Below are positions 9,947 to 48,649 of a stretch of 64,000 bases of DNA, in pieces (the first letter of the stretch is position 1; each line of letters begins with the position of its first letter). Origin of the DNA: Artemia franciscana (lineage: Eukaryota > Arthropoda > Branchiopoda > Anostraca > Artemiidae). The stretch lies in assembly GCF_032884065.1 (NCBI RefSeq), contig NW_027062908.1:1-64000 (forward strand), written 5' to 3'. A program made the translations under genes and the position numbers. A model generated the notes under the pieces. That model was given only the letters and a program-made list of their open reading frames with translations, was not told where the DNA came from and ran no database searches.

Positions 9947-9948
<2 letters not shown>

Positions 9949-10012: not shown

Positions 10013-10015
<3 letters not shown>

Positions 10016-10199
10016 TGGGAGACTTGGCACAATTTTGTCTTTATCTTACGTCTCCAATCTGATTGGATATATATTAAATCTGACTTATATAAGTCTTTTG
10101 GGGCGTTTGAGGGTGGAAACTCCAGCCTTATTTGTGGCAATAAATCTTCGTTTTATGTTTGGCTTCATTGTTCATTTTAAAACATATAAATGAGAACTC

Positions 10200-10330: not shown

Positions 10331-11077
10331 GAATTCAAAACTTAAAAAATAAAAAAAAGAATCTAAAATCAAAGAAGAATAAAGAAAAAAAAATGATCAA
10401 ACCAAATATTTACAAGTACTATGACCAAAACCCGGAAGAAAAAGACAATAACAATATAATGTGGCACTTATATGACAAATACAAAATGCTGCTTCTGTGT
10501 AAAGATCTTCTTCTTTGTTTTGTTTATTTTAATTCTTTTTTGTTTGAATATTAATGTCTTCATTCATATTAATTCCTGCTCTTATAGGTTTCCGATTTAA
10601 CTAGTTTTTGCTTGTTCATAAGTTATAAAATCGCTCTTTACTTATCACGGAATAGAACACTTTTTAATTCATTCAACACGGAGTAAATTGTGGTTATCTT
10701 ATGTGATTATTATATTACTTCATTATTTATTATTCATTCATTCACTAGTTATGTCATGAAAAAAAAGCCCTCATATAAAGTAGCTTCTGTTTCCATTCAC
10801 ATTCCCAGCTCCTGAGATAACAGACTGTCTGTAGTTTTAACTATAAAAGGAAAATTTTTCTAAGTGCTAAATTATAAACAACTTCGGCAGTACCTTGCTG
10901 CTGTGAGCAGCATTTTCCATCAATAAATACTATGTACATTCAGTCCAGTTTTTCAAGTCCCTGCAAGAATGGTAAAGAATATCAGACAAGCCCCTAGATT
11001 TGGGATTGCGACGAAATCCCACAAAAAAAAGTGAGACTATATACACCCTCTCTTGATGCTAAAGAGACAAAACTTAC
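10331..11077. other. Intron sequence without recognisable features
   Basis: AT-rich sequence between repeats and the splice donor of the large exon. No exon or named repeat could be supported. Confidence 0.5.
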
Positions 11078-14000: not shown

Positions 14001-14330
14001 CTATCACCATCAAATTTACGTGTTCATTCTCTGCTGGAAAAATTACCACCGGGTCTTTTTGATCCCCTCCATCTCCGAAATAAAAACCCCTTACTTCATC
14101 TGAGACTGACGGGGGTCCAGGGGGCAGGCTCTAAGGTTGTTGTCGGTGTGTTAGTACTCCTTTCACTTTGTACTTCCATTAAATTTGACAATATATCATC
14201 CATGACTTGGTCGTTTTTTTCACCATCTGACAATTTCTCTTCAAGAAAAAATCTTACTTTTGAATTGCTCCTTCTATAAATTTTTCCACTTCCTACAACC
14301 TGAATGTCTTCCTTAGTATCATGAAGATGC
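11078..14330 (-). CDS. MAP3K4: MAP3K4/MEKK4 ortholog, giant internal exon with disordered insertion
   Basis: The acceptor is 'tcttttttcag|GCATC' at 14330 and the donor is 'TTAGAG|gtaagttt' at 11078; 3,253 bases in frame with both neighbours. The last 232 codons (11078-11773) are clearly MAP3K4. LYHPFVEQELKSKGLRK parallels IYRPFVDKALKQMGLRK, and LAMNLPSYEAQYIFICR parallels KAMDLPSFEPAFLVLCR. DEWTTYCRQTAVHIPKGEVH parallels the EEW...ITHYIRGGEAQ block. The first ~850 codons are rich in Ser, Asp, Asn and Glu and look unstructured; the vertebrate protein has only about 100 residues in this place. Three weak internal repeats of the form K-[FL]-[DE]-G-D-S-G-N start at 14017, 13774 and 13561. Two compensating frame breaks interrupt 14018-14115. 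Exact function of the insertion is unknown; docking or regulation is only a guess. Confidence 0.85.
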
Positions 14331-14619
14331 CTGAAAAAGATTAAGATTTGATAGAATCACTTTTGTTTTACTATTGCTTAGGGCATGAGAGTACATATGG
14401 TTTATAGTAATTTTCATAAATATATTAAGTAAGGGATTTTATCATACAGCTGTGTGTTAGACTAAATATAAAATTTTCCTCTGTCGTTCTCATTTTATAG
14501 GGTTAGGCTTAAATGGATTTGGGCCCTGGCTACAATAAAAAGTTTACATCATACATTTGCAATGGATAAGAACTATATAACGGGATATAATTTATATGCA
14601 CAATGAAATAGGAACATTA

Positions 14620-16130
14620 TAGCACACAATAAACAACAAAGAGAGATAAAACTCTACAAAAAAAAACCTCAAACGAGACTACGGCCAGTAGAGAGGAAAG
14701 ACTAAAACAACGCCAATATTTCGCCTGTATGGGCGTCAAACTAGGCTCAGCACACGATAAAAAGAAAACTAAACTAAAAACAGATAAAACCACCACCAAT
14801 AATAATAAATACAATTGTCGCTACTGATCCACGTAGGGAAAAGAAGCTATTCGAGTTACTTCAATGAGAACATCAAAGCAACTGAGAAAAAATTATGAAA
14901 ACTGAAACTTAGTTAACAATTCTGTTGCGAAATAATCCTCTTGTAAGCTAATATTGAAGCAACTCTTTTTGGTCTAGTAGGTAATCTTGTCCCCTGGTGA
15001 TTGTGTAAAATTTTAATTCCCTTATTGACTATTGGCTCATTTTTTAAAAGAAAATCATAAATTGGGTCAAGATTTAAATTCCCTGTGTCTCTATTTATTG
15101 AAAGATTAGCAAATGTATGTTTTTTAATTTCCATAGCCTCCCTTGCCCACTGAGAAAACCCTCTATCATTTGAAATAGCTGTAGCCTCATCAAATCGTAT
15201 AAAATGTTCGGGATGAAAGATTGTATGTTCAGCTAGAGCCGAAACAAAAGTTTCAGGAGGCTTTCTTAATTGTAGGGTTTTTTCTATTGAGTTGCGATGC
15301 TCAATAAATCTTTCAGTAAATTGTTGGTACTAGCATAAAATTTTCCACAAGAACAAGGAATTTTATACACTCCACGAACTAAATCTCCCCGGGTTAAATC
15401 CTTTCCAGAATTAAGAAAAGTACCTAAATGGTCTCACTGATAGGAAACAACTATCAATATTATGTTTACATAAAATTTGTTAAAGCATCTTCCCCAAAGT
15501 AGGTACATAAGGCAAAGAAATGAACCTTTTCGGTTTATTTTTAATTTTGTGCACTGTGAAACCCCAATAACCCTATTGTTGTGTTTAATGCGTCAATTTT
15601 TTATTATTTTATCAATGAATTTAATCGGGTAGCTATTACAAAATATAACATCCCTCAAATACAACAAATCAGAATCTAAAAACTCCTGAGAACAAATTCT
15701 GAAAGCTCTATCCACCAGTGCAATCACAACCCCCCGTTTCACTGAAGTAGGATGGCACGAGTGAAAGTTCAAATACCTATCACTGTGTGTAGGCTTTCTA
15801 TATACTGAAAAAAGTAAATGGAGATCAGTTTTAATCAATAAGATATCAAGAAAAGGTAGTTTGTCATTTTCTTCAAACTCCACTGTAAGTTTTACATTTT
15901 TGTAAAAACTATTTAAATGTTTATGGAAAAGGTCTAAAGACTCTAAACCGTGTTTCCAAATGCAAATCACATCATCCATGAAGGGGAGAGCCTAAAATTG
16001 TGTATAGCGGAGGTTTCAATAGATTCCATGAAGAGATTTGCCAACAAAGGGGAGAGAGATGCTCCAACAGCCAAACCAATTATAGACATTTCCTCCTGTA
16101 ATTAATTGCAATAAATCTACATGCCATTTT
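14620..16130 (-). mobile_element. Penelope-like retroelement, 5'-truncated (RT and GIY-YIG remnants)
   Basis: Reading leftwards, the first piece is a reverse-transcriptase palm segment, GLAVGASLSPLLANLFMES. It is followed after a frame break near 15979 by the catalytic-site region MDDVICIWKHG and the thumb-side stretch FLDILL...VYRKPTHSDRYL. These are hallmark Penelope RT motifs. About 15430-14913 encodes a GIY-YIG endonuclease remnant: GVYKIPCSCGKFY, then QQF..RFIEHRNS and HILHNHQGTRL-type C-terminal sequence. A 3' untranslated region follows to about 14620, with a decayed hammerhead-like motif near 14710-14755. Frame breaks make it inactive. A closer relative is at 59730-60440. Confidence 0.88.
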
Positions 16131-17738
16131 TAATGTCTAAAAACGTAACTAATCCTTACTAATTGTAAACTAACTGAATTTTACTAGTTTTACTAATCTT
16201 CAGCTTCATAAATTCGAGATATCAAAAATGCTTCTCAAAGTATATCGATTTTTTTTTTTTTGGGGGGGGGGTGGGTGGGGGGGGGGTGTTGCAAAATAAA
16301 ATAAAAACTAATTTTAATGACCTTTTTTTCTTTTGGATATGTGCAAACATGTACACCAAATATAAATTATTACTATTAACCATCCTTCTTTCCCTCTATC
16401 AGCTTATCCGTTTGGTTTCCCTAGCCTGAAGCATTTCAGATTACTAGTGTAAAAGGAATTATCGGAACAGTTGCTATTGCTATTAATTTTCTTACAGAAA
16501 CAGGGTTCCACTTATAAATTGTTTAAAAGTTACAATTGCACTCGCATAACAGCACTGTACTTGCATGAATACTACCCAATGCACAAACCATTGGATAGGC
16601 TAATGCAAGTAGAAAAGTACTTAATTTGAGGTATGCTTTGTAGTTTACCTCTTTTTACTCTTTTCAACTTAATCATGTAAATTACTTTTCGAGGCATCCA
16701 GCATATACTACAAAAGAGTTCGAATATCAACTCCTCCAATTATTTGCAAGAAGTTAACTAGATTTAAACAAGAGGTTGAGCCAAAGCCATTCAAAGGGGG
16801 GCGACCGGGTGAGCTGCCCCGGTTGCCATGACTAGGGGTGCCGCGGCTTGGGGATTTCCCACTTTGATACAATTTCTCACTTTGATTCGGCTTTTTTTTT
16901 TCTTATGCTTGAGTCAGGAGGGGGCGTTATAATTAATTTTTTCCGGGCGTCACCAACCCGAGGAACGGCTCTGGGTTGACCAGATCCTCATTATTGTCCC
17001 CAAGCATCGACAACGAGTAAAGACCTGCGTTAACGCGAAACCTTTCAATTTACTTTCCAAGACATTGCCTGCTTTCCCCAATTTCAAAGTTATCTCTTAA
17101 TGCCATAAACTTTTTTAGATCATTGCCATGCATCATAGTTAGAAAAATAAACCCCCCTTCATATCTCCTTTATGCTGTAATAAAGTCATAGCAATGTCAA
17201 ATTCAAAGTTAAAAGTACTATTTCTTTACTTCTTGAATAATATTCTTCCTAAATACTATCCGAAATCATTTTACGAGCTCAAGTGTCAGCTGATCGTCAC
17301 AAAGACTGAGGACCCATTAGCGGATCCTCCCAGGGTCTAGCTATCATCGAGAGATGTCAAATATTAATGGTTTGACTGTGAAATTCGACTGAAAAGACAG
17401 TGAAATTTAAAATTCCTTTTGTCAGTGAGCTTGTCAATAAAAGCGGTAACAACCCAGGGAACACCCAGAGCAGTCAAATTGCTCAAATGATAATTCCTTT
17501 CAGGAGCTTTCAGCATTTTCCCAACAGGTAAGATAGAAGATTATTAGAAGCTGCCCTTTCCAGAATTTTAAAAAGAAAGTTCCACTCCATTTAATTGAAA
17601 AAAACCAGATTCACACTATCTGTTTATATAAGCTTCATTAAAACTTAATATCTCTATCTCCAGCACAAGACGCGAGAATTTAGAAGATTTTTACTTGGAT
17701 TTTTGGGAGAGCTGCGCCAAGTTGAAGTTTCTTTTTTT
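16131..17738. other. Intron sequence; G-run, otherwise featureless
   Basis: Positions about 16261-16288 are almost pure G, following a T run. A GC-richer patch at about 16790-16870 is a possible unrecognised repeat. No exon was seen. Confidence 0.5.
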
Positions 17739-19691
17739 TATGGCACTTGGTATTAACCAAGTGACATATAGCAGTCGCCAATTCTGTCGGTCTGTCGGTC
17801 TGTCTGTCGGTCTGTCTGTCGGTCTGTCTGTCGGTCTGTCTGTCGGTCCCGGTTTTGCTACTTTAGGCACTTCCAGGTAAGCTAGGACGATGAAATTTGG
17901 CAAGCGTATCAGGGACCGGACCAGATTAAATTAGAAATAGTCGTTTTCCCGATTTGACCATCTGGGGGGGAGTGGGGGCCCGGTTAATTCGCAAAAAATA
18001 GAAAAAATGAAGTATTTTTAACTTATCAGCGGGTATTTGGATCTTAATGAAATTTGATGTTTGGAATGATATTGTGTCTTAGAGCTCTTATTTTTAATCC
18101 CGACCGGATCTGATGACATTGGGGGGAGTTGGAGGGGGAAAACCTAAAGTCCCGGTTTTGCTACTTTAGGCACTTCCAGGTAAGCTAGGACGATGAAATT
18201 TGGCAAGCGTATCAGGGACCGGACCAGATTAAATTAGAAATAGTCGTTTTCCCGATTTGACCATCTGGGGGGGGGAGAAGGGGCCGGTTAATTCGGAAAA
18301 ATAGAAAAAATGAAGTATTTTTAACTTATGAGCGGGTGATTGGATCTTAATGAAATTTGATGTTTGGAATGATATTGTGTCTCAGAGCTCTTATTTTAAA
18401 TCCCGACTGGGTCTGATGACATTGGGGGGAGTTGGAGGGGGGGAAACCTAAAATCTTGGAAAACACTTAGAGTAGAGGGATCGGGATGAAACTTGATGGG
18501 AAAAATAAGCGCAAGTCCCAGATACATGATTGACATAATCGGAACTTATTTGCTCTCTTTGGGGTAGTTGGGAGGGGGGGAGTAAGTCTTAAAAATTAGA
18601 AAAATGAGGTATTTTCAACTTACGAACGGGTGATCGGATCTCAATGAAATTTGATGTTTAGAAGGATATCGTGTCTTAGAGCTCTTATTTTAAATCCCGA
18701 CCGGATCTGGTGATGGGGGCGGGGAGTTGGGAGGGGGGAAACCTAAAACTTGGAAAACACTTAGAGTGGAGGGATCGGGATGAAACATGGTGGGAAAAAT
18801 AAACACAAGTCCTAGATAGATGATTGACATAAACGGAACGGATCCGCTCTCTTTTGGGTAGTTGGGGGGGGGGGGGGTTAATTCTGAAAAATTAGAAAAA
18901 ATGAGGTATTTTTTAACTTACGAATGGGTGATTGGATCTCCATGAAATTTGATTTTTAGAAGGATATCGTGGCTCAAAGCTCTTATTTTAAATCCTGACC
19001 GGATCTGGTGACATTGGGGGAAGTTTGGGGTGGGGAGACCTAAAATGATGGGAAACCCTTAGATTGGAAGGATTGGGATGAAACTTGGTTGGAAAAATAA
19101 GCAAAAGTCTTGCATACGTAATTTACATAATTGGAACGGATCCGCTCAATTGCGGGGGGGGGGGGGGGGTAATTCTGAAAAATAAGAAAAATAACGTATT
19201 TTTAACTTACGAAGGAGTGATCGGATCTTCATGAAACTTCATATTTAGAAGGACCTCGTAACTCTGATATCTTATTTTAAATCTCAACCGGATCAAACGT
19301 AATTGGGGGGGGGACAGTTGGGGGGACCGGAAATCTTAGAAAATACTTAAAGCGGTGAGATCAGGATGAAACTGGATGGGAAGAATAGAAACCTGTCTAA
19401 GATACGTGACTGACATAACTGGACCGGATCTGCTCTCTTTGGTGGAATTGGGAGGGGGGAGGTAATTTTGAAAATTGAGGTATTTGTAACTTACGAAAGG
19501 GTGACCAGATCTTAATGAAATTTGATATTTAGAAGGATCTTGTGCTATAAAGTTTAACTTTAGGTTCTGACCTTCTCACAAGTGCCAAATGAGCTCTTGG
19601 CTCTTCCGACCTCGTCCAAATGAGCTCTTGGCTCTTCCGACCTCGTACCATATGAGCTCTCGGCTCTTCCGACCTCGTCACAAGTGCCATA
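17739..19691 (+). mobile_element. Rep-B element, full copy with 11-bp terminal inverted repeats
   Basis: The element is bounded by TATGGCACTTG (17739) and its exact inverse CAAGTGCCATA (19681-19691). Just inside the left end are a hairpin (cacttggtattaaccaagtg) and a (gtctgtcg)n microsatellite. The interior is a chain of diverged ~270-280-bp units with 'gatgaaatttg', 'ggatcttaatgaaatttgat' and 'gagctcttattttaaatccc'. The right end has four short repeats of 'gagctcttggctcttccgac'. No protein is encoded. It is probably a non-autonomous DNA element; no target duplication was found. Confidence 0.7.
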
Positions 19692-19839
19692 TGAGCTCTT
19701 AGCTCTTGTTTTAATTCCAATGGGTAATTAAGAAAAAAAAATAAATCACACAGAGAAAAATTTTTCAATCCTTTCATGGATGTAAAGAACCACAATATTT
19801 ACATTTTTAAATATAAATACTGAGAGTGGTCACTGATGG

Positions 19840-20010
19840 TTCTAGGCGTTTACCCCCCCCCCTCATGGCGTTTACCCCCTGGAAAATACCCCCTCCCAGA
19901 AAATACTACCCAAAGGAAAACACCGCCTCGGAAAATACCCCCGTGGAGAATGCCCCCCGCGGAAAATACCCTCTGAAATATAACTCCATGAAAAATAACC
20001 CCCAGAGCCC
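19840..20010. repeat. Minisatellite based on GGAAAATACCCCC
   Basis: A unit of about 20 bases with 'ggaaaataccccc' repeats about eight times with changes. C-runs flank the array. Confidence 0.7.
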
Positions 20011-20039
20011 CCCCCCCTCCGTAGAAACTTACATAAATA

Positions 20040-20640
20040 CAAACCCATCTTGAGGAGGAGGCAACCCCTTTCATATACGTAATAATTTCTATCCGTTTTA
20101 AGGTTTGTGGGTGCTCCTTACTTTCAGTTGAAAAACTTGTTTTTTATTCAATTACTTACCAGTCAGTATTTGTTGATGAGAAACATGCGTAAAAAGTTTT
20201 TTAACAAATACTACTTTTTAACAAAAATACTTTTTTTAAAAAGTACGTTTTTAACAAAAACTATCAGTAAGTAATTTAACAAAAAATTACAAGTTTTTAG
20301 ACTCAAAGTAAAAAGCAACCACAAACCTACAGAAATCATTACGAATATGAAATGGGTTACCTCCTCCTCAAGACTTCGCCCTTTACGCTAAAGTTTTTTT
20401 TTATAAAATTTTAAAACAATGCTTATTATTCTAATTAAACGGCCAGTGTGTTTCAGGAATCGTTCTTAAAGAATTATGACAAAAGTCAAAACTTTAGCGT
20501 AGAGAGCAAGGTCTTGTGGAAGGGGCAACTCCTCTCATGTACTTAATAATTTCTGTTCGTTTTCAGTTCTGATGTTGCTCCTTACTTTCAGGTGAGGAAA
20601 CTTGTTTTTTAAATTTAATTTCTGATAGTTTTTAAGTAAT
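20040..20640. repeat. Rep-A dispersed repeat, two to three modules
   Basis: 'cccctttcatatacgtaata' and 'gctccttactttcag' at about 20065-20130 recur inverted at about 20300-20400 and again in direct orientation at about 20490-20600. This matches the inverted modules at 7780-8040. It is noncoding. Confidence 0.65.
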
Positions 20641-21105
20641 ACCGGAAATTCCGGCTCTATCTCTATGAAAAATTCCGGTACTTGTGTATTATACGCCACT
20701 CATTCAAGTTTACGGCGTATAACACTTAAGAACAAAGCGGTTTCTATGTTAGTTTTTTCGTTACCTTAGAAACAAACCTGGGCTATATATTTCCACATGA
20801 GGGTGGGGGGGGGGGGGTTAAAGTACATTGGGTCTGTATGCACAATGAGTTAGGTACAATTATTCTGCATATTACGAAGTGAGAATTGTTTTCTTACTTC
20901 AAGTTGTCAAAATACTTCTCCACTCCCCATATGTGCAGATATATAGCCCAAATTATTCATTTTCCATCTATTCTGTTACTTGTCTTTGTCTTGTCTCGGA
21001 CTAAACTGGAAAAAGCTAACGAAGAAACTGATTTGTTCTCGAGTTTTACGCAGCGTAAACTTGACTGAATGGCGTATAATACACAAGTACCGAAATTTCT
21101 TCCAC
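20641..21105. repeat. Foldback/MITE-like inverted repeat
   Basis: The segment at about 20680-20730 ('ccggtacttgtgtattatac' then 'gccactcattcaagtttac') recurs inverted at about 21050-21100 ('gtaaacttgactgaatggc' then 'gtataatacacaagtaccg'). The arms are about 45-50 bases and enclose ~320 bp with no coding capacity. Confidence 0.65.
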
Positions 21106-22638
21106 CTACGGAAAAAAACAACAACAAGACTCAAACAAAATTCTCGAATTTGGAAAGCCCTATTTTCAGGGGGCGGGTAAACACCAGTGATTACCCCCCC
21201 CCCCCCCAATCTTACCTCTCTTTGATCAAAATAATTAACTAAATATTTCCCTGTTTCTTTCCTCGGGGAAAACCAGACCATAATAAAAAAAAAGATTAAA
21301 GAATAAAAAACTATTCTTTTGTAAAGGTTTTTTGTTTTGTCAGGTTTTAGTTTTCTGTAATCTAGACTCCACAAGTTTTGGCAAGACCACCCAATCAATT
21401 CTAAAAGTATTGCGACACAAACTGACAAAGCTTATGACGGACAACATACGGTTATCCTTTAAGGTACCGTCTCACCTTAATGAAAGATCAAAGCTTTTCG
21501 CTCTCCACTTCCCGACATATGAGCCTCGTGACGACTATCCAGCGACACATTGATAATGTGTAAATTATTAAATTTACATTAGCTGATCACAGGCTCAGTA
21601 TGACAGACATCAGCTGATCACAGGTAGAGTATGATCGATTAACAGGAGAAACTTGAATATTTCAGCAAGAGATCCTATCCCTAAATTACACAGCATCTCT
21701 TCTATGAAGATGGAACAAATGGATATTAGTAACGACATTAGGGTTATTTTCAAATTATTGGACACTTCTGCTTCCGGAAACAGATTTAGTTTGTTACTGG
21801 AAGAAACAAAGGAATAACAACAACTAGAATTCACTGTTAAACCTCCTTCCTTGGGACTCGAGAACATTGCCTCCTGTACAATAAGTGGGCCACTTCCCAC
21901 TGAGATAAAATTCAAGTTAAGCGGGAGTAGTGGGGGCGGGGGTAGTTTGTCTTAGCAAGAAGACAGTACAGTCACTGATGGAAAGACACTGTGGTCTTTA
22001 CAGTCAATTACCGTACATAATGCACTTGTTTAGACACAAGGGGTACCTGTAAACATCACGAGGGCATCGTTTCTAAATTTCTTTAATAGATAATTTTCGT
22101 TTTTCTTATGATGTCACTTGAGAAACAAAAAGGGTGGTAGTACTTGATTACAAATTGTAGAATAGTTGAAAGAATTTACAGATGTAGGTTGATTATTTAA
22201 TTCAAAAGTCTGACCTCTACTAATAGCTAGTGACTGGTTGTTCCTCAGCCATGCTTGTTTTAGTGTTATCAGGTTTTTGAATAATTTATTTTGGCGTTAT
22301 CGTAAAAGGAAAATTATTACCAATTGCCAAAATATTGATGTAATTTTGTCTGAGAAGTTATTTGACAAGCTGTACAAGGTCTTTATTTTATTTCAAGGCC
22401 TTGCCACAATCTGATCAGGCCCGTTGCATAGTCGTACTTTTCGTTATTTTGTCTTTATTTTATATAAAACTAGTCTTACTCCTACATAACTGCCATAAAG
22501 GGCAAAGCTGTGTAGAAAAATAGTGTAGATGATGATAATGATGAATAGGCATGATTAAAAGGAATTGGCAGGATATGCTAAAATGAAGCAGAATAAGGCC
22601 AGCTGATTATTCACAGTTAATAAAACTGAGGAACTTAC
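21106..22638. other. Intron sequence with open but unrecognised stretches
   Basis: Plus-strand open stretches occur near 21332-21553 and 21630-21820, the latter protein-like in composition. Neither resembles a known family, and neither has a matching partner or splice context. I would not call a gene. Confidence 0.35.
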
Positions 22639-22949
22639 GCTGGTTGATCATTCCCATCTGATTTCGTGTAGTTACCAGGTTCACTAAAGCTTCTCATTAG
22701 CTTAATTGTTGAAATCCTTTCATCAGATTCTTCTTCTTCTAGTGAAAGATTCCACACAGGCCATTGCGGCCATAAAACTTTGCTACTCGTATTATGGAAT
22801 ATTGACCCAACAATATCAATTCTCATTCTTAGCGTCCTTATAGTATTTAACCAAACACAAAGAGATTTGAGACGCCCAATAAAGCGTTCAGATCTGTAAG
22901 TAGGGTAGTTCAAGCCCACTGCTTTGCTTGATGGGTAAAGTAACTCGAT
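22639..22949 (-). CDS. MAP3K4: MAP3K4/MEKK4 ortholog, internal exon
   Basis: This exon encodes about 103 residues. It starts after 'ttttag' in phase 0 with IELLYPSSKAVGLNYPTYRS, which parallels vertebrate IEALYPSLQALQKDYEKYAA. FIGRLKSLCVWLNTIRTL parallels FQDRVQALCLWLNITKDL. The stretch IVGSIF...WPVWNLS parallels the MGTVL...WPVFEIP part. An acidic stretch (EEEESDE) follows. The donor is 'CCAGC|gtaagt', leaving two bases that are completed by the first base of the giant exon. Joined to the preceding exon it reads ...DILDEIEK|IELLYPS..., matching the family without gap. Confidence 0.93.
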
Positions 22950-24239
22950 CTAAAATAAAAAATATTAATCAAGAAAATACTTTTCTGAACTGTTTGGATC
23001 CAAAGAACGAGGTAAAAATTTGTAACCACCCCTACCCTCTTAGTTGTCAGGTATGGAATGTTAGGGAGTGCATCGGCCTCACCCTTCAAACGAATTAATT
23101 TTGCTTCAATTTCATGACGTTTCCTTCTCTCTATTTTGAACTGTTGTTTAACTTGCCACAAAAAGGTAATTATATACACGGCACAGGTGGAGACCCTCAG
23201 ATCAAATTCACGTCCGTTTACCTAAAATATATGGAGAAAAAAAGTAAGAGATCCTCCGTCAACGGTAGAATCCGTGGACCTTGAAAGTAAAGTCAATCCT
23301 TGAACAAATGACATTTTCATTAAAAAAAAAATGGTGGTGTTCTGTTTTAATACTATACAAAATAAATAATAATAAATAATAAAAAAAAACAAATTAAGGG
23401 TATTGCAAAGTGAACTGCATATTGTTCAAGTTATTTAACTGATAATAAATTTCTATGATGATTATTTGGAGGGTGAAAGCTAACAGCGACTTCCGCATTA
23501 AGCAACGTACATGGAAAAAAATATTTATAAATACAAAAGTAAAATTTACTTTATTTTTGTTAGAAAGGCAAAAACAAGTTATCACACTTAAGATTTTAAA
23601 AAAACATATTATCATTGGCTCTTATTGGCTATTATTATCCCACGTTATTGGCTCTTTGTAATATCAGGCAACACAGTAAAACTGGGGTATCTTAACTTCT
23701 AAATGCGTTGCCAAGATATACTCTAAAGTCTCAGCAAAACAACCTCCTCGTAGTTGCCAGACATTGGGTGTTACGGTGTGTGTCAATCTCGCCCCTCCAA
23801 CTAAGTTGAATTTTTGGCGTTTATGAAGTTTAAGATAAAAAGTGCTTTACTCTTTCTCATAAAAACGGGTCAATATTTAAAAAAAAAAATACGTTTTAAC
23901 ATAAACCTTTTCAAACATAAACACTTTAGGAAATGGAAGTACCTTTAACAGGGCCAAATCAAGAAGAAGGGAGGAGGGATTGCTCCACTTAAATTTAGTG
24001 TTTGGGCTAAATAAGCGAAACTACCATGAATGGATTTATAATCTCAATTAGGGCATTTGAAGGTATTTCCAAGGTACTTTTTCAACTGTACTTGGCCTAT
24101 CTCACTTGCACTAAAAATTGAGGCACTTGAAAGATTCTACGAGAAGAGCCCTAATTTTGGAAATGAAAGTCAAAGTTAAATTAAAATTCAGCGCCACATT
24201 GCCAAGGCACACAGCTTCTAAGCAGTTTTGCGACTCCAA
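22950..24239. other. Intron sequence without supported features
   Basis: A minus-strand open stretch at 22970-23179 looks protein-like, but the splice chain bypasses it (see rejected items). A weakly similar stretch occurs near 23730-23830, so it is probably an old repeat. Confidence 0.45.
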
Positions 24240-25170
24240 TCACCTTATTTATGTTTGGTCGGTAAATATCAAATTTCATTAAGGTCCGATCACCCATTCG
24301 TAAGTTAAAAATACCTCATTTTTTTCCTCTCCCTCTAGCCCCCTAGATGGTCGAACCGGGGAAACGACTGTTACCGAGTCAATTTATGCAGGTCCCTGAC
24401 ACGCCTACAATTTTCATCGTCCTAGCACGTCCAGAAGCACCGAACTCGCCAAAGCACAGGAAATCCCCCCCCCACTCCGTTCCAATTATGTCAATCACGT
24501 ATCTAGAACTTGTGCTTATTCTTCCCATCAAGTTTCATCCCGATCTCTCCACTCTAAGCGTTTTCCAAGATTTCCAGTTTCCAAGATTTCTGTTTCCCCC
24601 TCCAGCCCCCTAAGTCCCCGGATCCAATCCGAATTGAAAATGGAGCATCTGAGACATAAGATCTTTCTGTTTGTCAAGTTTCAATAAGATCCGATCACCC
24701 ATTCGTAAGATGAAGATACCACAATTTTTGCGCTTTCCAAGATTTCCGGTTTCCCCCTCCAACTCCCCCCAATGTCACTGGATCTGGTTGGGATTTAAAA
24801 TAAGAGCTCTGATTTTTCTAAACATCAAATTTCATTAAGATATGATTACCCGTTCGTAAGTAACAAATTGCTCATTTTCTAATTTTTCAGAATTCCCCCC
24901 CAACTCCCCCAAAGAGAACGGATTCGGTCCGATTATGTCAGTCACGCATCCTGGACTTTTTGTACTTATTCGTCCCACCAAGTTTCATCCTGATCTATCC
25001 ACTCTAGGTGTTTTCCAAGATTACTGGTCCCTCCCTCCCCCCAACTCCCCCCAATGACACTGGAGCCGATCAGGATTTAAAATAAGACATCTGAGTTGCG
25101 AGGTTCTTCTAAATATGAAATTTCGTTAAGATCTGATCCCTCTTTCGTAAGTTAAAAATACCCAACAACA
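24240..25170 (-). mobile_element. Rep-B element, partial copy
   Basis: Repeated blocks such as 'atcaaatttcattaagatc', 'gatcacccattcgtaag' and 'aaaataagagctctga' match Rep-B in the same orientation as the copy at 53912-56379. Neither terminal inverted repeat is present. Confidence 0.7.
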
Positions 25171-26272
25171 TGGATTGACAATCCTTCCATGATTATGTTT
25201 CAACCAACATGCCTGCCTTTCAGCAAAAAATGGCAGGGAGAGAGGGGTTGTTTGGGAGGGGAAGTGCAGTGTCCCACCTTGAGTTACCAATCATACAGTT
25301 AGCATTGTTTAGGCAATATATCACTGATTATAAAAAAATATTATTTTGACTACTAAAAAACTTTAGAATCTAGTGTCGGCGTACAAAAAAATCACCTTTT
25401 TCCCCTAATACATCACGCATTGTTCTGGAGAAAAACTAAATATTTCAAATTTTGATCCAATTCAAATAAAATTCTAATATTCGTTTTTAATTCGTTCTGG
25501 AGTTGTCTTGATTCTTACTCAAAAACCATGAAAAACCACGTCAACCTGAAAAATATCCTTTTATTTTCAATATGCTCAAAAGTATATAATGTATTTTGAA
25601 ATATTGAATTTATTCACAAGAATTAAGATATGGATTCTCAAAAACTACAATTCCATTTCAAGCAAAACTCCCCTTTCCAATTTCAAATGCTGGACCAGTT
25701 TAGTGTTGATTAATTTAAGCACCATCTAATGGGTGCACAATTTTATTTAGATCAGTTTAATGGTTTATCAAATTTCTTCAATCTAGTCATGTTGAATGTG
25801 TTACAGTATTTTTTAATTATCCATATAATTCATGATGTTCATGGAATTTATACCCCTTAACTTTGTTATTATTATTTTGCCTTTTGTGCTAACATATGTT
25901 TTTTCAGCAAGTATATTTGTTTTATACATTGCAGTGACAAGAAATTTGCTTTAAGCTCGACGAAGGAGGACTTATTAGATGTTTTCCAGAGGAACTGTGT
26001 ACGGATTAGTTCGGGTACGCGCCTGACTGACCGTATTTCAAAAAGTAATCTGTACAAAAAATGTGTTTCTATCCTGCTTTCTAGGGCTATAATGTCAGGC
26101 CGAAGAATTTAAGGGAAATTGCAAATCCTTTGAAGGGCATAAAGAGGGAGGCTCAAATAGATTGGGATGGAGGATGCGCGTGGGTCGCTGTGTTGGTCTC
26201 AGGCTGCTTGGTGCTGCAGTGAGTTGTTAGTAGTAGTAGCATAAATTTATAAATAAGATAAGAAAAACTCAC
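25171..26272. other. Intron sequence without recognisable features
   Basis: AT-rich sequence up to the donor of the next exon. Nothing further could be supported. Confidence 0.5.
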
Positions 26273-26575
26273 CTTTTCAATTTCATCTAATATATCGCAC
26301 ACAATCTTCATGGCTCGACTCTGGTGCATCAAGCAAGACTGACAATAAATAGACAGGCATCCATCACATTGGGGCATAGGCCCAGAAAAATCACTCAATG
26401 GCAGGTCAATTCTTTCATACTTGAAGTTCAAAAGCTTATCAATAATTGGGCTGACTTTCTCCCTTTCGCTTGATAAATATTCATGCTGCTCTGATATAGT
26501 TCGTCCATTATGCCATGCCTGTAGCTCAAGCCAAAGATTGTCTCTGTAGTTTGGATATGTAGAATCTTCACTAAT
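26273..26575 (-). CDS. MAP3K4: MAP3K4/MEKK4 ortholog, internal exon
   Basis: This exon encodes 101 residues in phase 0 at both ends: acceptor 'cttgtag|ATTAGTG', donor 'GAAAAG|gtgagttt'. The core NLWLELQAWHNGRTI matches vertebrate ELIWLELQAWHAGRTI almost residue for residue. SPIIDKLLNFKYE parallels PDIINEILTFKVD, and the end DILDEIEK parallels IMELLEY. A cysteine-rich insert (CDGC...CQSC within GPMPQCDGCLSIYCQSCL) is not something I recall in the vertebrate protein. Its CxxC pairs could bind a metal, but that is a guess. Confidence 0.94.
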
Positions 26576-26635
26576 CTACAAGTTTGAAATACATTAATAC
26601 GAAGAACGACATACAAATTTAAAATACATGCATAT

Positions 26636-28320
<1,685 letters not shown>

Positions 28321-28697
28321 CTGTCGATTATAAACCTTGGTCTCAGACCTATGCTCATTTCCCAATTTGATTAGCAATGAAAAAACGCTGAAAAATTCGT
28401 TCCGATCATTTTTCGCACTGGTCCGTCCTCCGGAAGACCTGGGTTTCCCCCCAATGTCTCGGTAAATCAACTTGTCTGACATAACTAACGACCGTGGACT
28501 TAACTTGTTATCTTGCACGTCACTGTTCAAAGAGCTAGGCCTCATGTCATCATTTTGAATGTCTTGGTCAGGTGTCCCAGTATGTGGACTCGGATACCCA
28601 GAGTCCCCAAAAGCAGGGATCAGGCTCATATCCGATTTTGCTCTTCGTAGATTTCGCAGAGGCACTGAGGAAATACTCGGAGTTGCCATGGTAATAT
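28321..28697 (-). CDS. MAP3K4: MAP3K4/MEKK4 ortholog, N-terminal region exon
   Basis: This exon encodes about 125 residues. The acceptor is 'attacag|ATATTACC' with two bases completing an Asp codon, and the donor is 'CGACAG|gttagt' in phase 0. The first part is a Ser/Pro/Asp-rich linker. The end, NEFFSVFSLLIKLGNEHRSE, parallels vertebrate KFFETLRLLLKLTSVSKKK, the start of the conserved N-terminal helical domain that leads into WLELQAWH of the next exon. A Met codon lies six bases into the exon. It cannot be excluded as an alternative start, but the upstream exon at 40678 fits its phase. Confidence 0.85.
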
Positions 28698-29409
28698 CTG
28701 TAATTTCAAATAAGATATGACTCTGTTTTGTCATATCTGAGCTTTGATAATAAGAAAAATTTGATATGAAAAACAAGCTGGCTGAACACCTTGCCACTGG
28801 ACCATGATTAAATGAGGAGAGAGAATGTAGATTAGTAATTCTGTGGTTTGAGGTGGAATTGAAAATTGAATTCTCCGCAAAATCCGAAACCAGGGAATGC
28901 CCCCAAATCTTAATCCCAAATATAAGCCTTAAAAAAGCTAATTGCGTTGGGTTTGAATTGGTTTTTAAGGGTCTGTTACAACGTGCTTACCTGCTGATAA
29001 TCAATAATATTAGCTTTAAAACTGCTTTAGACATCATTTTCACTAAAAAGAAAAAACACATATAACATCCAGATTTCATGGAAAAAGATTTAATTGTCTT
29101 CAAAAGGGAATTTAAACATCAAATTATTTCTTATCTTACCAGCTAAATTACACCACATTTAGGTACCAAAGATCTCACAACCTTGAATTGATGGAATGAA
29201 AATTTCTTAGCCAGTCTACAATTGAGCCAAAAGTTCAAAGTCACATTTTCTTGTGAAAAAAAACGTAAAATAAAATAGGAGAATCGTTTCCTACTAAGCT
29301 GGACAGGAGAGACAAGAAAATTACGAGCAAACAGTCGTGGGATCAAAGTTGATCCAAACAACCAAACTTAAGTTCTTCCCGAAAAGTAGTGGTTTAATTT
29401 ACATATCAT
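28698..29409. other. Intron sequence without recognisable features
   Basis: Sequence between the exon and the hAT element. Nothing could be supported. Confidence 0.5.
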
Positions 29410-41149: not shown

Positions 41150-44100
41150 CATGAGAGTTCACCTCTCGTGAAATTGATTTTTCTTCTCGTGAAACTGTTT
41201 ATCTCATGGAACTTGTTGTGTGCTGATTTTCTTTCGTAAAACTTGTTGCATGTAGATTTTTCTCTTCGTGAAAATTTTTCATTGATTTTTCCTCTCGTGA
41301 AACTAATTCTGTTCATGGAACTTGTTGCATGCTCATTTTTGTTCGTAGAACTTGTTGCGTGCTGATTTTTTGTTCATGAAACTTGTTGCATATTGATTTT
41401 TCTCTTCGTGAACCGTGTACATCGATTTTTCTCCTCGTGAATCTGATTTTCTTCGTGGGGCCTCTTGGGTGCTGATTTTTGTTAGTGAAACTCGTTGCAT
41501 GTTGATTTTTCTCTTCGTGATACTTATACATTGATTTTTCTCGTTGTGAACTTGTTGCTTGCATATATTTATTCGTGGAGCCTGTTGCGTCCTGAATTTT
41601 TATTTTTGAAAGTTCTTGCGTGCTGATTTTTTGTTTCTTGAGCATATTACGTTCTGATTTTTTTTTTTTTTTTTGGTTCGTAAAACGTCTTGCATATTTA
41701 TTTTTCTCAGCGTGAAACTTCTACACTGATTTTTCTCCTGGTGAAACTGATTTTGTACATGGAACTTGTTGCGTCCTCAGTTTTTTTTAACTTGTTGTGT
41801 GCTGATTTTCGTTCGTGAAACTTGTTGCATGTTGATTTTTCTCTTCGTGAAACTTGAGCGTGGACTTTTCTCCAAGTGAAACTAATTTTGTTCATGGAAC
41901 TTCTCGCGTGCTGATTTTTGTTCGCGGATCATGTCGCGTGCTGATTTTTGTTCGTGAAAGTTTTTGCATACTGATTTTTTTTTCTTCGTGAACCGTGTAT
42001 ATTGTGTTTCTCCTTGTGAAACTGATGTTGTTCATGGAACCTCTTGGGTGTTGATTTTTGCTAGTGAAACTTGTTGCATGTTGATTTTTCTCTTTGTGAA
42101 ACTTATACATTGATTTCTCTTGTCGTGAAACTGATTTTGTTCATAGAACTAGTTGCTTGTTGATATTTGTTGGCGGAACCTGTTACGTCCTGATTTTTGC
42201 TTTTGAATCAACAAGTTTTGTTCGTGAAACTTGTCAAATGTTGATTATTCTCTTCGTGAAATTTTGTTGATTTTGTTCGTGAAACCTGTTGTGTGCTGAT
42301 TTTTGTTCGTCAAACTTGATGCAAGTTGATTTTCTCTTAGTGAAATTTGTACATTGTTTCTTCTCCTCGCGAAACTGATTTTGTTCATGTAACTTGTTGC
42401 GTGCAGATTTTTTGTTAATGTACTTGTTGCGTGCTGAATTTTTTTTCGTGAAACTTGTTGCATGTTGATTTTTTCTCTTCTTGAGAATTGAAAGTTGATT
42501 TTTTCTCCTCAAGAAACTGATTTTGTTCATGGAACTTCTAGCGTGTTGATTTTGTTCCTGGAGCTGATTTTTTTTTATTCATGAAACTTCTTATATATCA
42601 ATTTTTTTTCATCTTGAAACTTATACACTCGTCAATTTTCTCCTCGTAAAATTGATTTTGTTCATGAAACTTGTTGCGTGCTGGGTTTTCTTTCACGGAA
42701 CTTGTTATGTGCTGATTTTTGTTCGTGAAACATATTGCATGGTGATTTTTCTCTTCGTGAAACTTGTATATTCATCTTTTTCGTCGTGAAACTGACTTGT
42801 TCATGGAACTTGTTGCTTATTGATTATTGTTTGTGGAACCTGTTACGTCCTGATTTTTGTTTGTGAAACTTGTTGCGTGCTGATTTTTGTTCATGGAACT
42901 TGTTGTGAGTCAATTTTCTTCGTGAAATTTTTCGCCTGCTGATTTTTCACTTTGTGTAACTTGTTTATTGATTTATCTCCTCGAGAAACTGATTTTGTTC
43001 ATGGACCTTGTTGCGTGCTGGTTTTGATCGTATAGTTCGTTAAGTGTTCGTGAAATTTGTTACATGTTGATTTTTCTCTTCGTAAAACTTACGCATTAAT
43101 TTTTCTTCTTGTGAAACTGATTTTGCCCATAGAACTTGTTGCGTGCTGATGTTTGTTCGTAAAACATGCTGCAGCATGATTTTTCTCTTCATGAAACTTG
43201 TATATTGATCTTTCTCCACGTGAAACTGATTTGTTCACGGAGCTTTCCGCTTATTGATTTTTGTTCGTGGAACCTGTTGCGTCCTAAATTTTGTTTGTGA
43301 AACTTGTTGCGTGCTGATTTTTTGTTCATGTCACTTGTTCTGAGGCAATTTTCTTCATGAAATTTTTGGCATGTTGATTTTTCCCTTTGTGTAACTTATT
43401 TATTGATTTTTCTCCTCGATAAACTGAGTTTGTTCATGGAACTTGTTGCGTTCTGGATTTGTTCGTAGAATTTGTTGTGTCCGTGAAATTTGTTGCATGT
43501 TGAGTTTCTTCTTCGTGAAACTTATGCATTGATTTTTCTGCTTGTGAAACTGATTTTGCTCGTAAGACTTGTTGCGAGTTGATTTTTTGTTCGTGGAACT
43601 TATTGCATGCTCATTTTTAGTTCCGGTAACTCTTTACATGTTGAATTTTTCTCTTCGTGAGACTTGAAAATGGATTTTTTTTCTCCTTAAGAAACTGATT
43701 TTGTTCAAAAAACTTCGTGCGTGTTGATTTTTGTATCTGGAACGTTTTTCGTGCTGATTTTTTTATTCGTGAAACTTCTTGCATTTTCGGTTTTCTCGTC
43801 GTGAAACATACACTTTGATTTTTTTTCTCCTCATGAAACTGTTTTTCTCATGGAACTTGTTGCATGCTGATTTTTGTTCGTGGAATTTGTACATTGATTC
43901 TTCTCCTCGTGAAACGACTTTTGTTCATAGGACTTGTTGCGTTTTGATTTTTTGTTCAAAGAACTTGTTGTGTGTTGACTTTTTGTTCGTAAAACTTGTT
44001 CCATATTGGTTTTATCTATGTGTGAAAACTGTGTATTGATTTTTCTCCTCAAGAAACTGATCTTGTTCACGGAACTTTTTGCGTGATGATTTTCGTTCCT

Positions 44101-46225
44101 GGAATATATAGCGTGCTGATTTTTTTTCTGTTCGTGAAACTTATTGCATATTCATTTTTCTCCTCGTGAAACTTGTTGCGTACTGGTTTTTGTTCACGGA
44201 ACTTGTTGTGTGATGATTTTTGTTCTTGAAACTTGTTGAATCTGGATTTTTCTCTTCGTAAAACTTCTACACTGATTATTCTCCACGCGAAACTGGTTTT
44301 GCTCATAGAACTTTTTGCGTCCTGATTTTTGTTGGCGGAATTTGTTGCGTGCGGATTTTTGTTCGTGGAACTATTTGTATAATGATTTTTCTCTTCGTGA
44401 TACTTTAAATTGATTTTTCCTCACGTGAAACTCAGTTGTTCATGGAACTTGATGCAAGCTGATTTTTGTTCGTGAAACTTGTGCGTGCAAACTTTTTAGT
44501 TCTTGAAACTTGTTACATATTGATGTTTCTCTTCAGAAACCGTGTACATTGATTTTTTGAAACTTCTTGACTATTCATTTTTTCATCGTAAAACTTATAC
44601 ATCGATTTTTCTCCTCGTGAAACTATTTTTCTCATTGAACTAATAAAGTGCTGATTTTTGTTCTTGGAACTTGTTGTGTACTTGTTGCTTGCAGACTCTT
44701 GTTCTCGGAACCTGTTGTGTGCAGATTTTTGTTCTTGAAACTTGTTGCATTTTGATTTTTCCCTCCGTAAAACTTATACATTGATTTTTTTCTCCTCGTG
44801 AAACTAATTTTGTTCATGAAAATTACTGCGGTTTTGATTATTGTTCGTGGAACCTGTTGCGTGCCAATTTTTGTTCGTGAATCATGTTGCATGTTCATTT
44901 TTCTCTTCGTGAAATTTGTAAATTGAGTTTTTCTTCTCGTGAAACTGCTTTTGCTCATGGAACTTGTTGGGAGTTGACTGATCAGGGAACTTGTTGCGTG
45001 CTGATCTTTGTTTTCGAGACTTTTTGCATGTGGAATTATTTCTTCGTGAAACTTGTACACTGATTTTTTTTCCCCCGTGAAACCAATTTTTTTCATGGAA
45101 CTTAAGGTGTGCTGATTTTTGTTCGTGAAACTTGTTTCGTTCTGATTTTTTCGCGAAACGTGTTGCATGTTGGCTTTTCTCTTCGTGAAACTCGTATAGT
45201 TATTTTTTCTCCTCGTGAAACTGATTTTGTTCATGGAGCTTGTAAAGTGCTGAATGTTGTTCATGTAACTTGTTGTGTGCTGATTTTGTTCGTGGAGCTT
45301 GTTGCGTACTTATCTTTGTTCGTGAAACTTGTATATTGATTTTTCGCATCGAGAAACTTTTTTGTCCATCGAGCTTATAGCGCGTGGATTTTGCTCGTGG
45401 AGTGTGTCGCGTGCTGATTATTGTTCGTAAAAACTTGACGCCGTGTTGATTTTTCTTTTCATGAAACTTGTACATTGACTTTCCTCCGCGTGAAACTGAT
45501 TTTGTTCATAGCACTTGTTGCGTGTTGTGATTTTTCTTGGTGGAAAATATTGCATGCTGATTATTGTTCGTGAAACTTGTAGCATGTTGATTTTTCTCTT
45601 CGTGAAACTCGTATAATGATTTTTCTCCTCGTGAAGCTGATTTTGTTCATGAAAGTTGTTGCGTGTTGATTTTTTGTTCTTGGAACTGGATGCGTGCTGA
45701 TTTTCGTTCGTGAAACGGGTTGCCTGTTAACTTTTTCTTTTCGTGAAAGTTGTATATTTATTTTTTCTCCCAGTTAAACTGATTTTACTCATGAAACTTA
45801 TTAAGTGTTTTGTTCGTGGAACTTGCTGCGTGCTAATTTTTGTTCGCGAAACCTGTTGCATATTGATTTTTCTCTTCGTGGAACTGATTTTGCTCAAAAA
45901 ACTTGTTGCGTGTTGATTTTTTTTTCATAGAACTTTCTACATGCTGATTTTTATTTAGTGCAACGTATTACAAGTTGGTTTTTACTTTTTGTGAAAGTTG
46001 TGCATTGATTTTTCTCCAGAGGAAACTGATTACGTTCATGAAACTTGTTACGTGCTGATTTATGTTCGCGAAACTTGTTGAATATTGATTTTTCTCTTAA
46101 TGAAACTTGTATGTTTATTTTCCTCCTCGTTAAACTGATTTATGTTCATGATTTATGTTCGTACAGCTTCTACATTGGTTTTTATCCTCGTGAAACTGAT
46201 TTTTTTTTTCATGGAGCTTGTAAAA
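41150..46225 (+). repeat. Satellite array, arm 1 (~30-bp monomers, ~140-bp higher-order unit)
   Basis: The array is built of related monomers starting 'tgattttt'. The forms are 'tgatttttgttcgtgaaact' + 'tgttgcatgt', 'tgatttttctcttcgtgaaa' + 'cttgtacat', the short 'tgatttttctcctcgtgaaac', and 'tgattttgttcatggaactt' + 'gttgcgtgc'. They recur in roughly this order, giving a higher-order period near 140 bases. Copies differ by 10-20 per cent by eye. Open frames exist only because the unit rarely contains stops on one strand; they are not genes. Confidence 0.93.
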
Positions 46226-46237
46226 GGATGGTTTGGG

Positions 46238-48640
46238 TCCGGGGGAACAAAATCAGTCTCGCGAGGACAAAAATCAATGTACTAGTTTAACAAAGAAAAA
46301 ATCAAAATGTAACAAGTTTCACAAAAAAAACCACAACGCAACAAGTTCCATGAACAAAATCTGCATGCAACAGGTTTCATAACAAGAATCAGTTTCACAA
46401 GAAGAAAAATCGATGTACCAATTTCACTAAAAGAAAAGTCAACATGCTACATATTCACGAACAAAAATCAGCACGCAGCAGATACCACGAACAAAATCGG
46501 CATGTAACAGGTTTCATGAACAAAATCAGTTTCACGAGGGGAAAAATCAATGTACAATTTTCAGAAAAGAAAAATCAACATGCAACACGTTCCACGACCA
46601 GAATTCAGCAGGCAACAAAATCAGAACGCAACAAGTTCCATAAACAAAATCAGTTTCACAAGGAAAAAAACAATTTAGGAGTTTCATGAAGAGAAAAATC
46701 AACAAGCAACAAGTTTCACGAACAAAAATCAGCACACAACAAGCTCCGCGAACAAAATCAGCAAAAAACAAGTTCCATGAGCAAAATCAGTTTCAAGACG
46801 AGAAAAAATCAATGTACAAGTTTCAGGAAGAGAAAAATCAACGTGCAACAAGTTTCAAGAACAAAAATCAGCACAAGATCAGTTCCACGATCAAAAATAA
46901 GCCCGCAACAAGTTCCAAGAACAAAGTCTGTTTAATGAAAAATTAAGAAAAATTAATGTACAAGTTTCAAGAAGAGAAAAGCCAATATGCGAAAAGTTTC
47001 GCGAACAAAAAGCGGCACGAAAGAAGTTCCACAAACAAAAATCAGCACGTAAGGAGTTCCATGAACGAAATCGGTCTCACGAGTAGAAAAATCAATGTAC
47101 CAGTTTCACGAAAAAAAAAATCAACATGCAAGAAGTTTCGTGAAAAAAAAACGTACGCAACAAGTTCCATGAACAACATCAACACGAAACAAGTTCAATG
47201 AACAAAACGAGTTTCATCAGGAGAACGAATGTAACATGCAAAATGAGCATGCAACATGTTTCACGAACAAAATCAACAAGCGACGGGTTCCACGAACAAA
47301 AGTCAGAATGCAACAAGTTCAATGAACAAAATCAGTTTCATGAAGAGAGAAAATCAATTTTAAAATTTTACGAACGGAAAAATCAATATGCAGCAAGTTT
47401 CAAGAACAAAAATCAGCACGCAACAGGTTCCACGAACGAAAATCAACAAGCAACAAGTTCCATGAACAAAATCAATTTCACGAGGATAAAAAATCAATAT
47501 ATAACTTTCATGAAGAGAAACATCAACATGCAACAAGTTTTACGAACAAATTCAGCACACAACAAGTTCCACGAACAAAAATTAGCACACAAGAGGCTCC
47601 AGGAACAAAATCAGCTTAACGAGGAAAAAATCAATGTAAAAGTTTCACAAAGAGAAAATCAATATACAAAAAGTTCCATGAACAAAAATCAGTTTCACAA
47701 GGAGAAAAATCAATGTACAAGTTTCACGAAGAGAAAAATCAAAATAAAACAAGTTCCGAGAAATAAAATTAGCACACAACAAGTTTTATGAGCAAAATCA
47801 GTTTCACGAGGATTAAAATCAATATACCAGTTTCACAAAGAGAAAAGTCAAAATCCAACAAGCTTCACGTACAAAAACTCAGCATAAAAGAAGTTCTATG
47901 GACAAAAATCAGCACGAAACAGGTTTCATAAACAAAATCAGTTTCACGAGCATAAAAAGCAATGTATAAGTTTCACGATGAGAAAAATCAATAGGTAAGA
48001 GGTTTTAAGAATAAAAAAAATCAACACGCAAGAAGTCCCATGAACAAAATCAGTTTCATGAGGAGACAAATCAACGTACAAGTTTCACGACGAGAAAAGA
48101 TCAACATGCAACAAGTTTCACGAACAAAAAATCAGCACTCAACAAGTTCCATAAAGAAAAATCAACACGCAACAAGATCCAAGAACAAAATTACCTTCAC
48201 GAGAAGAAAATTTAACGTATAAGTTTCACGAGGAGAAAAATCAACATGCAACAAGTTTCACAAACAAAAAACAAACAAAAGGACAAAAATCAGCGCGCAA
48301 CAGCTTCCAAGAACAAAATCAGTTTCACGAAGAGAAAAATCAATGTACAAGTTTCACAAAGAGAAAAATCAATATACAACAAGTTCTACGAACAAAAATC
48401 AGCACGCAACAAGTCCCACGAACAGAATTAGCACGCAACAAGTTCCATGAACAAAATCAGTTTAACAAGTTTCATAAAAACATTCAGCACACAATAAGTT
48501 CCATGACCAAAAATTCAACACACTACATCAGTCAGATGTAGAAATCAAGTTTCACAATGAGAAAAATCAATGTACAAGTTTCACGAAGAGAAAAATCAAC
48601 ATACAAGAAATTTCACGAACAAAAATCTGCACACTACAAG
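46238..48640 (-). repeat. Satellite array, arm 2, inverted relative to arm 1
   Basis: The same monomers appear as their reverse complement, for example 'gcacgcaacaagttccatga', 'acaaaatcagtttcacgagg' and 'agaaaaatcaacatgcaaca'. The orientation switches once, across a 12-20-base spacer near 46219-46239 containing 'ggatggtttgggtccgg'. Together with arm 1 this makes an imperfect inverted repeat of up to 2.4 kb per paired arm. Confidence 0.93.
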
Positions 48641-48649
48641 GTCAAAGAA

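What the first reader, a model, noticed from the sequence alone, without database searches (positions are those of the whole stretch)
41150..48640. 7.5-kb satellite inverted on itself
About 5.1 kb of ~30-bp monomers, arranged as a ~140-bp higher-order unit, switches once to the reverse complement for about 2.4 kb, with only a 12-20-base unique spacer near 46219-46239. Transcription through it would give a kilobase-long double-stranded RNA hairpin, a possible siRNA source. It lies upstream of the last MAP3K4 exon found.
Basis: partly seen in the sequence, partly recalled or inferred. Interest (0 to 1): 0.7.

Follow-up and report, generated by a model that had tools for sequence, protein, structure and literature searches.

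The report
Old satellite repeat, inverted once midway
A 7.5-kb stretch of short repeated DNA near an animal MAP3K4 gene really does flip to the opposite strand part-way along, but it looks like an old, decaying repeat array that was inverted rather than a working RNA-hairpin gene.

Summary
A satellite-type array runs from 41,165 to 48,645: monomers of about 30 bp in a 139-bp five-part unit, on the + strand to about 46,235 (5.07 kb) and on the - strand from 46,245 (2.40 kb), with one switch between the arms. Both arms share one consensus (one indel apart). Units differ from it by about 14%, nearly star-like, and do not group by arm. The right arm is not a mirror copy of the adjoining left arm. 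The likeliest origin is an inversion or head-to-head joining in an array that has since decayed without visible constraint. An RNA of it could fold into a long, interrupted hairpin, but pairing shows no sign of being maintained, and transcription could not be tested. Near the array I found no terminal inverted repeats, target-site duplication or Helentron end features, so membership in foldback or Helentron elements is not shown. MAP3K4 coding lies on the - strand (Pfam-supported exons 4.6-26.6 kb, one more by eye to 29.0 kb), so the array is 12-15 kb upstream. The host genome could not be searched (ten requests answered as busy), so copy number and species are unknown.

The parts
41165..46235 (+). 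Left arm of the satellite: 185 monomer segments (counted to 46,248), ABCDE units of about 139 bp
   Evidence: segmentation
46224..46247 (.). Spacer at the orientation switch; partly a degraded D monomer, G-rich; no match in the flanks or arms above shuffled controls
46245..48645 (-). Right arm: 90 monomer segments (counted to 48,655) of the same ABCDE unit in reverse complement
42699..43594 (+). Later local tandem duplication (period 434 bp, about 3 units) inside the left arm
   Evidence: TRF, 85% matches; shared-variant pairs L11/L14 and L10/L13
48641..50817 (+). Different 352-bp tandem array that abuts the right end of the satellite (48,641-49,157 and 49,956-50,817, interrupted by about 0.8 kb)
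4627..28986 (-). MAP3K4 (MEKK4) coding frames, most 3' to most 5' found; the 28.3-28.9 kb piece is assigned by eye and recall only
   Evidence: Pfam MEKK4_N matches in 4627-5097, 10994-14023, 22635-22949, 26153-26575; 28285-28986 had no Pfam match

Best explanation
An old satellite-type array with one internal inversion. A 30-bp monomer was built into a 139-bp five-part unit, which spread into a once uniform array of about 54 unit lengths (shown: shared consensus, conserved ABCDE order). Part of the array came to lie in reverse complement, by inversion of a block reaching its right edge or by head-to-head joining while it grew (inferred). The units have since diverged almost independently by about 14%, apart from a few local duplications in the left arm (shown). 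No selected function is needed. Its effect is structural: it can form a hairpin or cruciform, and would make imperfect double-stranded RNA if transcribed (computed capacity; use not shown).
For: One switch between the arms and no misoriented monomers within them. Arm consensuses differ by one indel. In 47 units compared (31 left, 16 right), within-arm minus between-arm identity is -0.008, permutation p 0.96. Divergence is 14.6% left and 13.3% right. Shared variation is scarce: 7 of 1,081 unit pairs exceed a cut-off expected to pass 0.54; 6 of the 7 are left-left, two of them in the 434-bp duplication, and one is left-right. The right arm anchored at the junction scores no better than elsewhere on the left arm (851.5; mean 847, sd 37), while simulated mirror copies with 5-27% substitutions stand 5 to 8 sd above other registers. 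C>T/G>A asymmetry differs between the arms in monomer orientation (permutation p 0.0095, the lowest of 6 tests), as decay after the inversion under a strand-biased process would give.
Against: The trace that a simple inversion may leave, right-flank DNA at the junction, was sought and not found. The asymmetry result does not survive correction for 6 tests (about 0.057). A star-like pattern cannot by itself date the switch. Unit-level diagonals at the junction register ranked second and third of all, 1.9 and 1.7 sd above the mean, a weak hint of mirror copying. Both arms stop inside the same monomer type (D) at the junction if a weak 11-base E match is ignored, which a fold-back event would also give (chance about 1 in 5). 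Read-level proof of the junction is missing.
Confidence: 0.62

Rival explanations
1. A foldback-type DNA transposon (FB, TU, Tetris-like) whose long terminal inverted repeats consist of short tandem subrepeats, moved by a transposase encoded elsewhere.
For: The geometry is that of foldback elements: inverted arms of tandem repeats with a small middle. Tetris in D. virilis has arms with ~220-bp tandem repeats (PMC4079207, abstract and sections 10 and 17). The 31-bp subrepeats of Drosophila FB are recalled, from no call.
Against: Inverted matches between the left flank and two right-flank stretches do not exceed 8 shuffles. No target-site duplication at the edges: the longest word shared by the two edge regions is 7 bp, 60 and 27 bp away from the edges. 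Arms are very unequal (5.07 and 2.40 kb). No second copy could be looked for (genome search did not complete).
Confidence: 0.13
2. The array is the central tandem module of a non-autonomous Helentron (HINE) element, possibly with the neighbouring 352-bp array as a second module.
For: HINE elements in oyster carry satellite-like central arrays, sometimes two in a row (PMC7492417, abstract and section 7). Two elements with HINE-like left ends (hairpin CACTTGGT-ATTA-ACCAAGTG plus a GTCK-type microsatellite) lie in this window, their ends at 17.7 and 56.4 kb. A 352-bp array abuts the right edge.
Against: No exact 8-bp-stem hairpin in 40,400-41,200 and no GTCN microsatellite among the TRF rows next to the left edge. 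No paired ends by inverted matching. Hairpins of this kind are common in the window (3,958 by the same count, many nested or in AT runs), so this is a modest test. The section I read describes no array that changes orientation; the switch would still need its own event.
Confidence: 0.1
3. A hairpin-RNA locus: the array is transcribed and diced into siRNAs that act on other satellite copies or on genes.
For: Fold energy doubles because of the inversion (-1979 against -956 kcal/mol for 4,816 bases, + strand). 94 distinct 21-mers are exactly complementary between the arms, none in the one control pair of equal size. Tandem hpRNA loci such as hp-CG4068 are known in Drosophila (PMC10317233, passages).
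Against: Arms are no more alike than units within an arm, and sequence alignment shows no mirror register. No array 21-mer occurs elsewhere in the window. No transcript or small-RNA data are on hand.
Confidence: 0.06
4. Assembly error: two separate arrays, or a folded chimeric read, joined at 46.2 kb.
For: Inverted repeats are a classic misassembly point (general knowledge), and no reads are at hand.
Against: A folded read (missed adapter) would give nearly identical mirror arms; here units of the two arms are about 76% identical and there is no mirror register. The window holds no N bases.
Confidence: 0.09

Closest known systems
Dispersed satellite DNA arrays of invertebrates (for example mollusc satDNAs, PMC5139131, passages seen; oyster satellitome, PMC8268682, search listing only)
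   Same: kb-sized tandem array among transposon remains, with abrupt edges
   Different: this one reverses orientation once and has a five-part unit of 30-bp monomers; three short words of its sequence were found only in 13 papers whose titles concern unrelated subjects (listing only)
Foldback transposons (FB, TU, Tetris)
   Same: inverted arms made of tandem subrepeats with a short middle
   Different: no flanking domains or target-site duplication found, very unequal arms, no second copy seen
Helentron non-autonomous elements (Cg_HINE, pearl family)
   Same: satellite-like arrays; two HINE-like elements lie in this window
   Different: the hairpin and microsatellite ends were not found next to this array
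Drosophila hpRNA loci such as hp-CG4068
   Same: inverted and tandem sequence able to give long hairpin RNA
   Different: hp-CG4068 is a row of 20 (D. melanogaster) or 9 (D. simulans) hairpins with Dicer-2-dependent siRNAs (passages); here one large imperfect inverted array with no expression evidence

Membership tests
Satellite-type tandem array | Many head-to-tail copies of one unit sharing a consensus | tested here: met
   185 and 90 monomer segments, ABCDE order, 86-87% to consensus
Satellite-type tandem array | High copy number in the genome or heterochromatin | not testable with these tools
   The genome search of the own genome did not complete (10 attempts)
Foldback transposon | Inverted arms containing tandem subrepeats | tested here: met
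Foldback transposon | Terminal inverted flanking domains outside the subrepeats | tested here: not met
   inverted matches between 40,401-41,164 and 48,641-49,400 or 50,801-51,600 do not exceed 8 shuffles; BLAST of 38,500-41,400 against the window lists no match in the right flank among the 60 best rows
Foldback transposon | Target-site duplication of 8-10 bp at the ends | tested here: not met
   longest word shared by 41,081-41,175 and 48,601-48,720 is 7 bp, not at the edges
Helentron HINE element | subTIR plus IR hairpin and tetranucleotide microsatellite before the array | tested here: not met
   no exact 8-bp-stem hairpin in 40,400-41,200, no such microsatellite among TRF rows there; ends further off or with mismatched stems not tested
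Helentron HINE element | 3' subTIR and palindrome within about 60 bp after the array | tested here: not met
   first such hairpin after the array is at 49,231-49,258, 586 bp on and beyond part of the 352-bp repeats
hpRNA / siRNA locus | Long complementary arms in one potential transcript | tested here: met
hpRNA / siRNA locus | Primary transcript and Dicer-dependent 21-22-nt RNAs | not testable with these tools
   no RNA data on hand
hpRNA / siRNA locus | Pairing maintained between the arms | tested here: not met
   between-arm identity 0.759 lies between the within-arm values 0.745 and 0.774; no mirror register by alignment

The most novel reading that the evidence does not exclude
The array upstream of MAP3K4 is read through by a transcript (perhaps a long 5' intron of MAP3K4 itself) and its two orientations form a long imperfect duplex that feeds Dicer or RNA editing. 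A single inversion would thus have turned a passive satellite into a small-RNA source acting on all other copies of that satellite.
Probability: 0.06. Interest if true: 0.6.

Novelty: new member of a known kind. Interest (0 to 1): 0.25.

Why it matters
As found, it is a clear case of a satellite that switches strand once and has decayed without arm-specific homogenisation, useful for studying how satellites invert and age near genes. It would matter more if small RNAs came from it, because one inversion would then explain how a genome gains a siRNA source against its own repeats.

Tried and rejected
Recent palindromic duplication: rejected. The right arm anchored at the junction aligns no better than at other places on the left arm (z about 0.1, junction-anchored 856.5 against mean 861.5 and sd 35; among 16 tiles the mirror place is best in 1). 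The unit-level diagonals at the junction register (offsets 15 and 14) ranked second and third, 1.9 and 1.7 sd above the mean; this is the hint the other way.

Simple inversion with carried flank: not confirmed. The spacer matches no flank and no arm above the best of 100 shuffles, in 8 of 8 comparisons.

CpG decay: in the right arm CpG C>T is 1.7 times and G>A 2.0 times the non-CpG rate; in the left arm 1.0 and 0.9 times. I draw no conclusion.

Coding in the arms: two of the twelve listed frames of 100 aa or more in the arms (128 and 225 aa) were scanned and have no Pfam match at 0.001; the other ten were not scanned. I read the frames as a by-product of a purine-rich strand poor in stops (inference).

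Related sequences: no exact match to two monomer patterns in viral contigs or to one of them in genome contigs, nor to the HINE-like hairpin in viral contigs. These collections are not of animals, so this says little. The whole-window island listing merged everything into one row per strand and is not used; the BLAST replaces it (best match outside the array E 0.34).

Papers: the sequence-word search listed 13 papers, titles unrelated, none opened. In the rows shown by the other searches (15 of 29; 35: 12 of 97; 36: 1 of 1; 40: 4 of 4; 42: 10 of 43; 46: 0; 47: 1 of 1; 52: 6 of 6) no title or abstract start describes this array; unlisted rows were not seen. Passages of PMC7004042 on orientation did not bear on inverted arrays.

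Full report
What is there. The window holds a satellite-type array from 41,165 to 48,645. Its unit is 139 bp, made of five related pieces: A (32 bp), B (30), C (17, a monomer lacking about 13 bases), D (30) and E (30). Wrap-around alignment with jumps between monomers finds 185 segments on the + strand (41,165-46,248, score 3205) and 90 on the - strand (46,245-48,655, score 1629); two control stretches give at most 18. Complete ABCDE runs number 22 in the left arm and 11 in the right. Neither arm holds a misoriented stretch: without jumps, reverse scores are 10 and 9 against 2507 and 1404, and seven diagnostic words fall on one strand only in each arm. So the orientation changes once between the arms. 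Just outside the left edge an 11-base piece (41,147-41,157) reads as a reversed monomer (10 of 11 bases, by eye in the sequence). No other copy was found in the window (best outside match E 0.34).

How the arms relate. I aligned the 47 units that begin with A-B and have at least four pieces (31 left, 16 right; other runs were left out). The arm consensuses differ by one indel. Mean identity is 0.745 left-left, 0.774 right-right and 0.759 left-right; within minus between is -0.008, permutation p 0.96. Units differ from the consensus by 14.6% (left) and 13.3% (right). Shared variants are few: 7 of 1,081 pairs exceed a cut-off expected to pass 0.54; 6 are left-left, two of these in the 434-bp local duplication that TRF reports, and one is left-right. 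This is an array that was once uniform and has since decayed with little homogenisation.

Is it a palindrome? If the right arm had been copied from the adjoining left arm after units had diverged, the junction register should stand out. It does not: 851.5 against a mean of 847 and sd 37 over the registers tried, while simulated mirror copies with 5-27% substitutions score 5 to 8 sd above other registers. Tiles of 280 bp agree: the mirror place is best in 1 of 16. At unit level the junction diagonals rank second and third, 1.9 and 1.7 sd above the mean, a weak hint the other way. Both arms end inside a D monomer at the junction if a weak 11-base E match is ignored, a coincidence of about 1 in 5. 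Copying while the array was still uniform would leave little trace and is not excluded.

Origin and time. A plain inversion could carry some right-flank DNA to the junction; the spacer matches no flank above shuffles. So either the breakpoints lay within the array and at its edge, or the array grew head-to-head. In monomer orientation C>T and G>A rates differ between the arms (left 0.114 and 0.123, right 0.168 and 0.099; permutation p 0.0095, the lowest of 6 tests, about 0.057 after correction). In genome orientation both arms then show more G>A than C>T on the + strand, slightly in the left arm and clearly in the right, as would happen if most decay came after the switch under one strand-biased process, for example transcription in the MAP3K4 direction. 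This is suggestive only.

Surroundings. MAP3K4 is real: Pfam MEKK4_N matches in order on the - strand in frames at 26.2-26.6 kb (profile 211-254), 22.6-22.9 kb (314-385), 11.0-14.0 kb (422-712) and 4.6-5.1 kb (732-808). A piece at 28.3-28.9 kb looks like the N-terminus by eye and recall only; it has no Pfam match. The array is thus 12-15 kb 5' of the last recognisable exon, in a 5' intron or upstream. To its right a different, 352-bp tandem array begins at 48,641 without a gap. Two elements with left-end features like those described for oyster HINE Helentrons (PMC7492417 section 7) lie in opposite orientation at 17.7-19.7 and about 54.0-56.4 kb, and PIF1-like helicase pieces at 61.6-63.5 kb. 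This points to an invertebrate with Helitron-type elements, perhaps a mollusc (inference); the species was not determined.

RNA capacity. For 43,830-48,645 (4,816 bases) the predicted fold is -1979 (+) and -2072 (-) kcal/mol; on the + strand, with the right arm flipped to head-to-tail, it is -956, and the longest unbroken helix falls from 27 to 11 pairs (the flipped control was folded on one strand only). In all, 94 distinct 21-mers have exact complements in the other arm, covering 803 left and 611 right bases; the one control pair of equal size has none. So a transcript would form a long but interrupted duplex. Against a maintained role: between-arm identity is no higher than within-arm identity, alignment shows no mirror register, and no array 21-mer occurs elsewhere in the window. 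Expression could not be tested.

Membership. Foldback elements share the geometry, but outer inverted domains and a target-site duplication were tested and not found, so I do not file it there. HINE end features were sought next to the array and not found; this is a modest test, since ends further off were not tried. hpRNA loci require transcripts and small RNAs, not testable here. It is filed as a satellite-type array with an internal inversion. Copy number across the genome remains open, because ten identical requests to search the own genome were answered as busy.

Verdict. Observation confirmed; ordinary but clean; interest 0.25. The bold reading, a small-RNA source made by one inversion, is not excluded (0.06).

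Noticed in passing
17744-19700 and about 53950-56374: Two HINE-like (Helentron) elements in opposite orientation, 76-93% alike over the listed stretches, each with the hairpin CACTTGGT-ATTA-ACCAAGTG or its reverse complement (17744-17763; 56355-56374), a GTCK-type microsatellite and ~293-bp central repeats; 35-38 kb apart.
   Followed up: partly
24263-25165: Further fragments related to the same ~293-bp repeats.
   Followed up: no
48641-50817: 352-bp tandem array abutting the satellite, split by an about 0.8-kb insertion (about 49158-49955) between what align as contiguous repeat bases.
   Followed up: partly
49231-49258: Perfect 28-bp palindrome within that insertion.
   Followed up: no
41147-41173: Small near-perfect hairpin at the left edge of the satellite, one side reading as a reversed monomer piece (by eye).
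   Followed up: no
61640-63460, - strand: Two near-duplicate PIF1-like helicase reading frames, probably Helitron/Helentron remains.
   Followed up: no
31416-31841, + strand: Reverse transcriptase remnant (RVT_1) between MAP3K4 and the satellite.
   Followed up: no
37272-38023: Sequence at 37272-37336 repeated at 37959-38023 with (AT)n tracts before each, 687 bp apart.
   Followed up: no
58857-58937, - strand: Rfam tRNA match (35.9 bits) beside T-rich repeats, not found by ARAGORN; perhaps a SINE.
   Followed up: no
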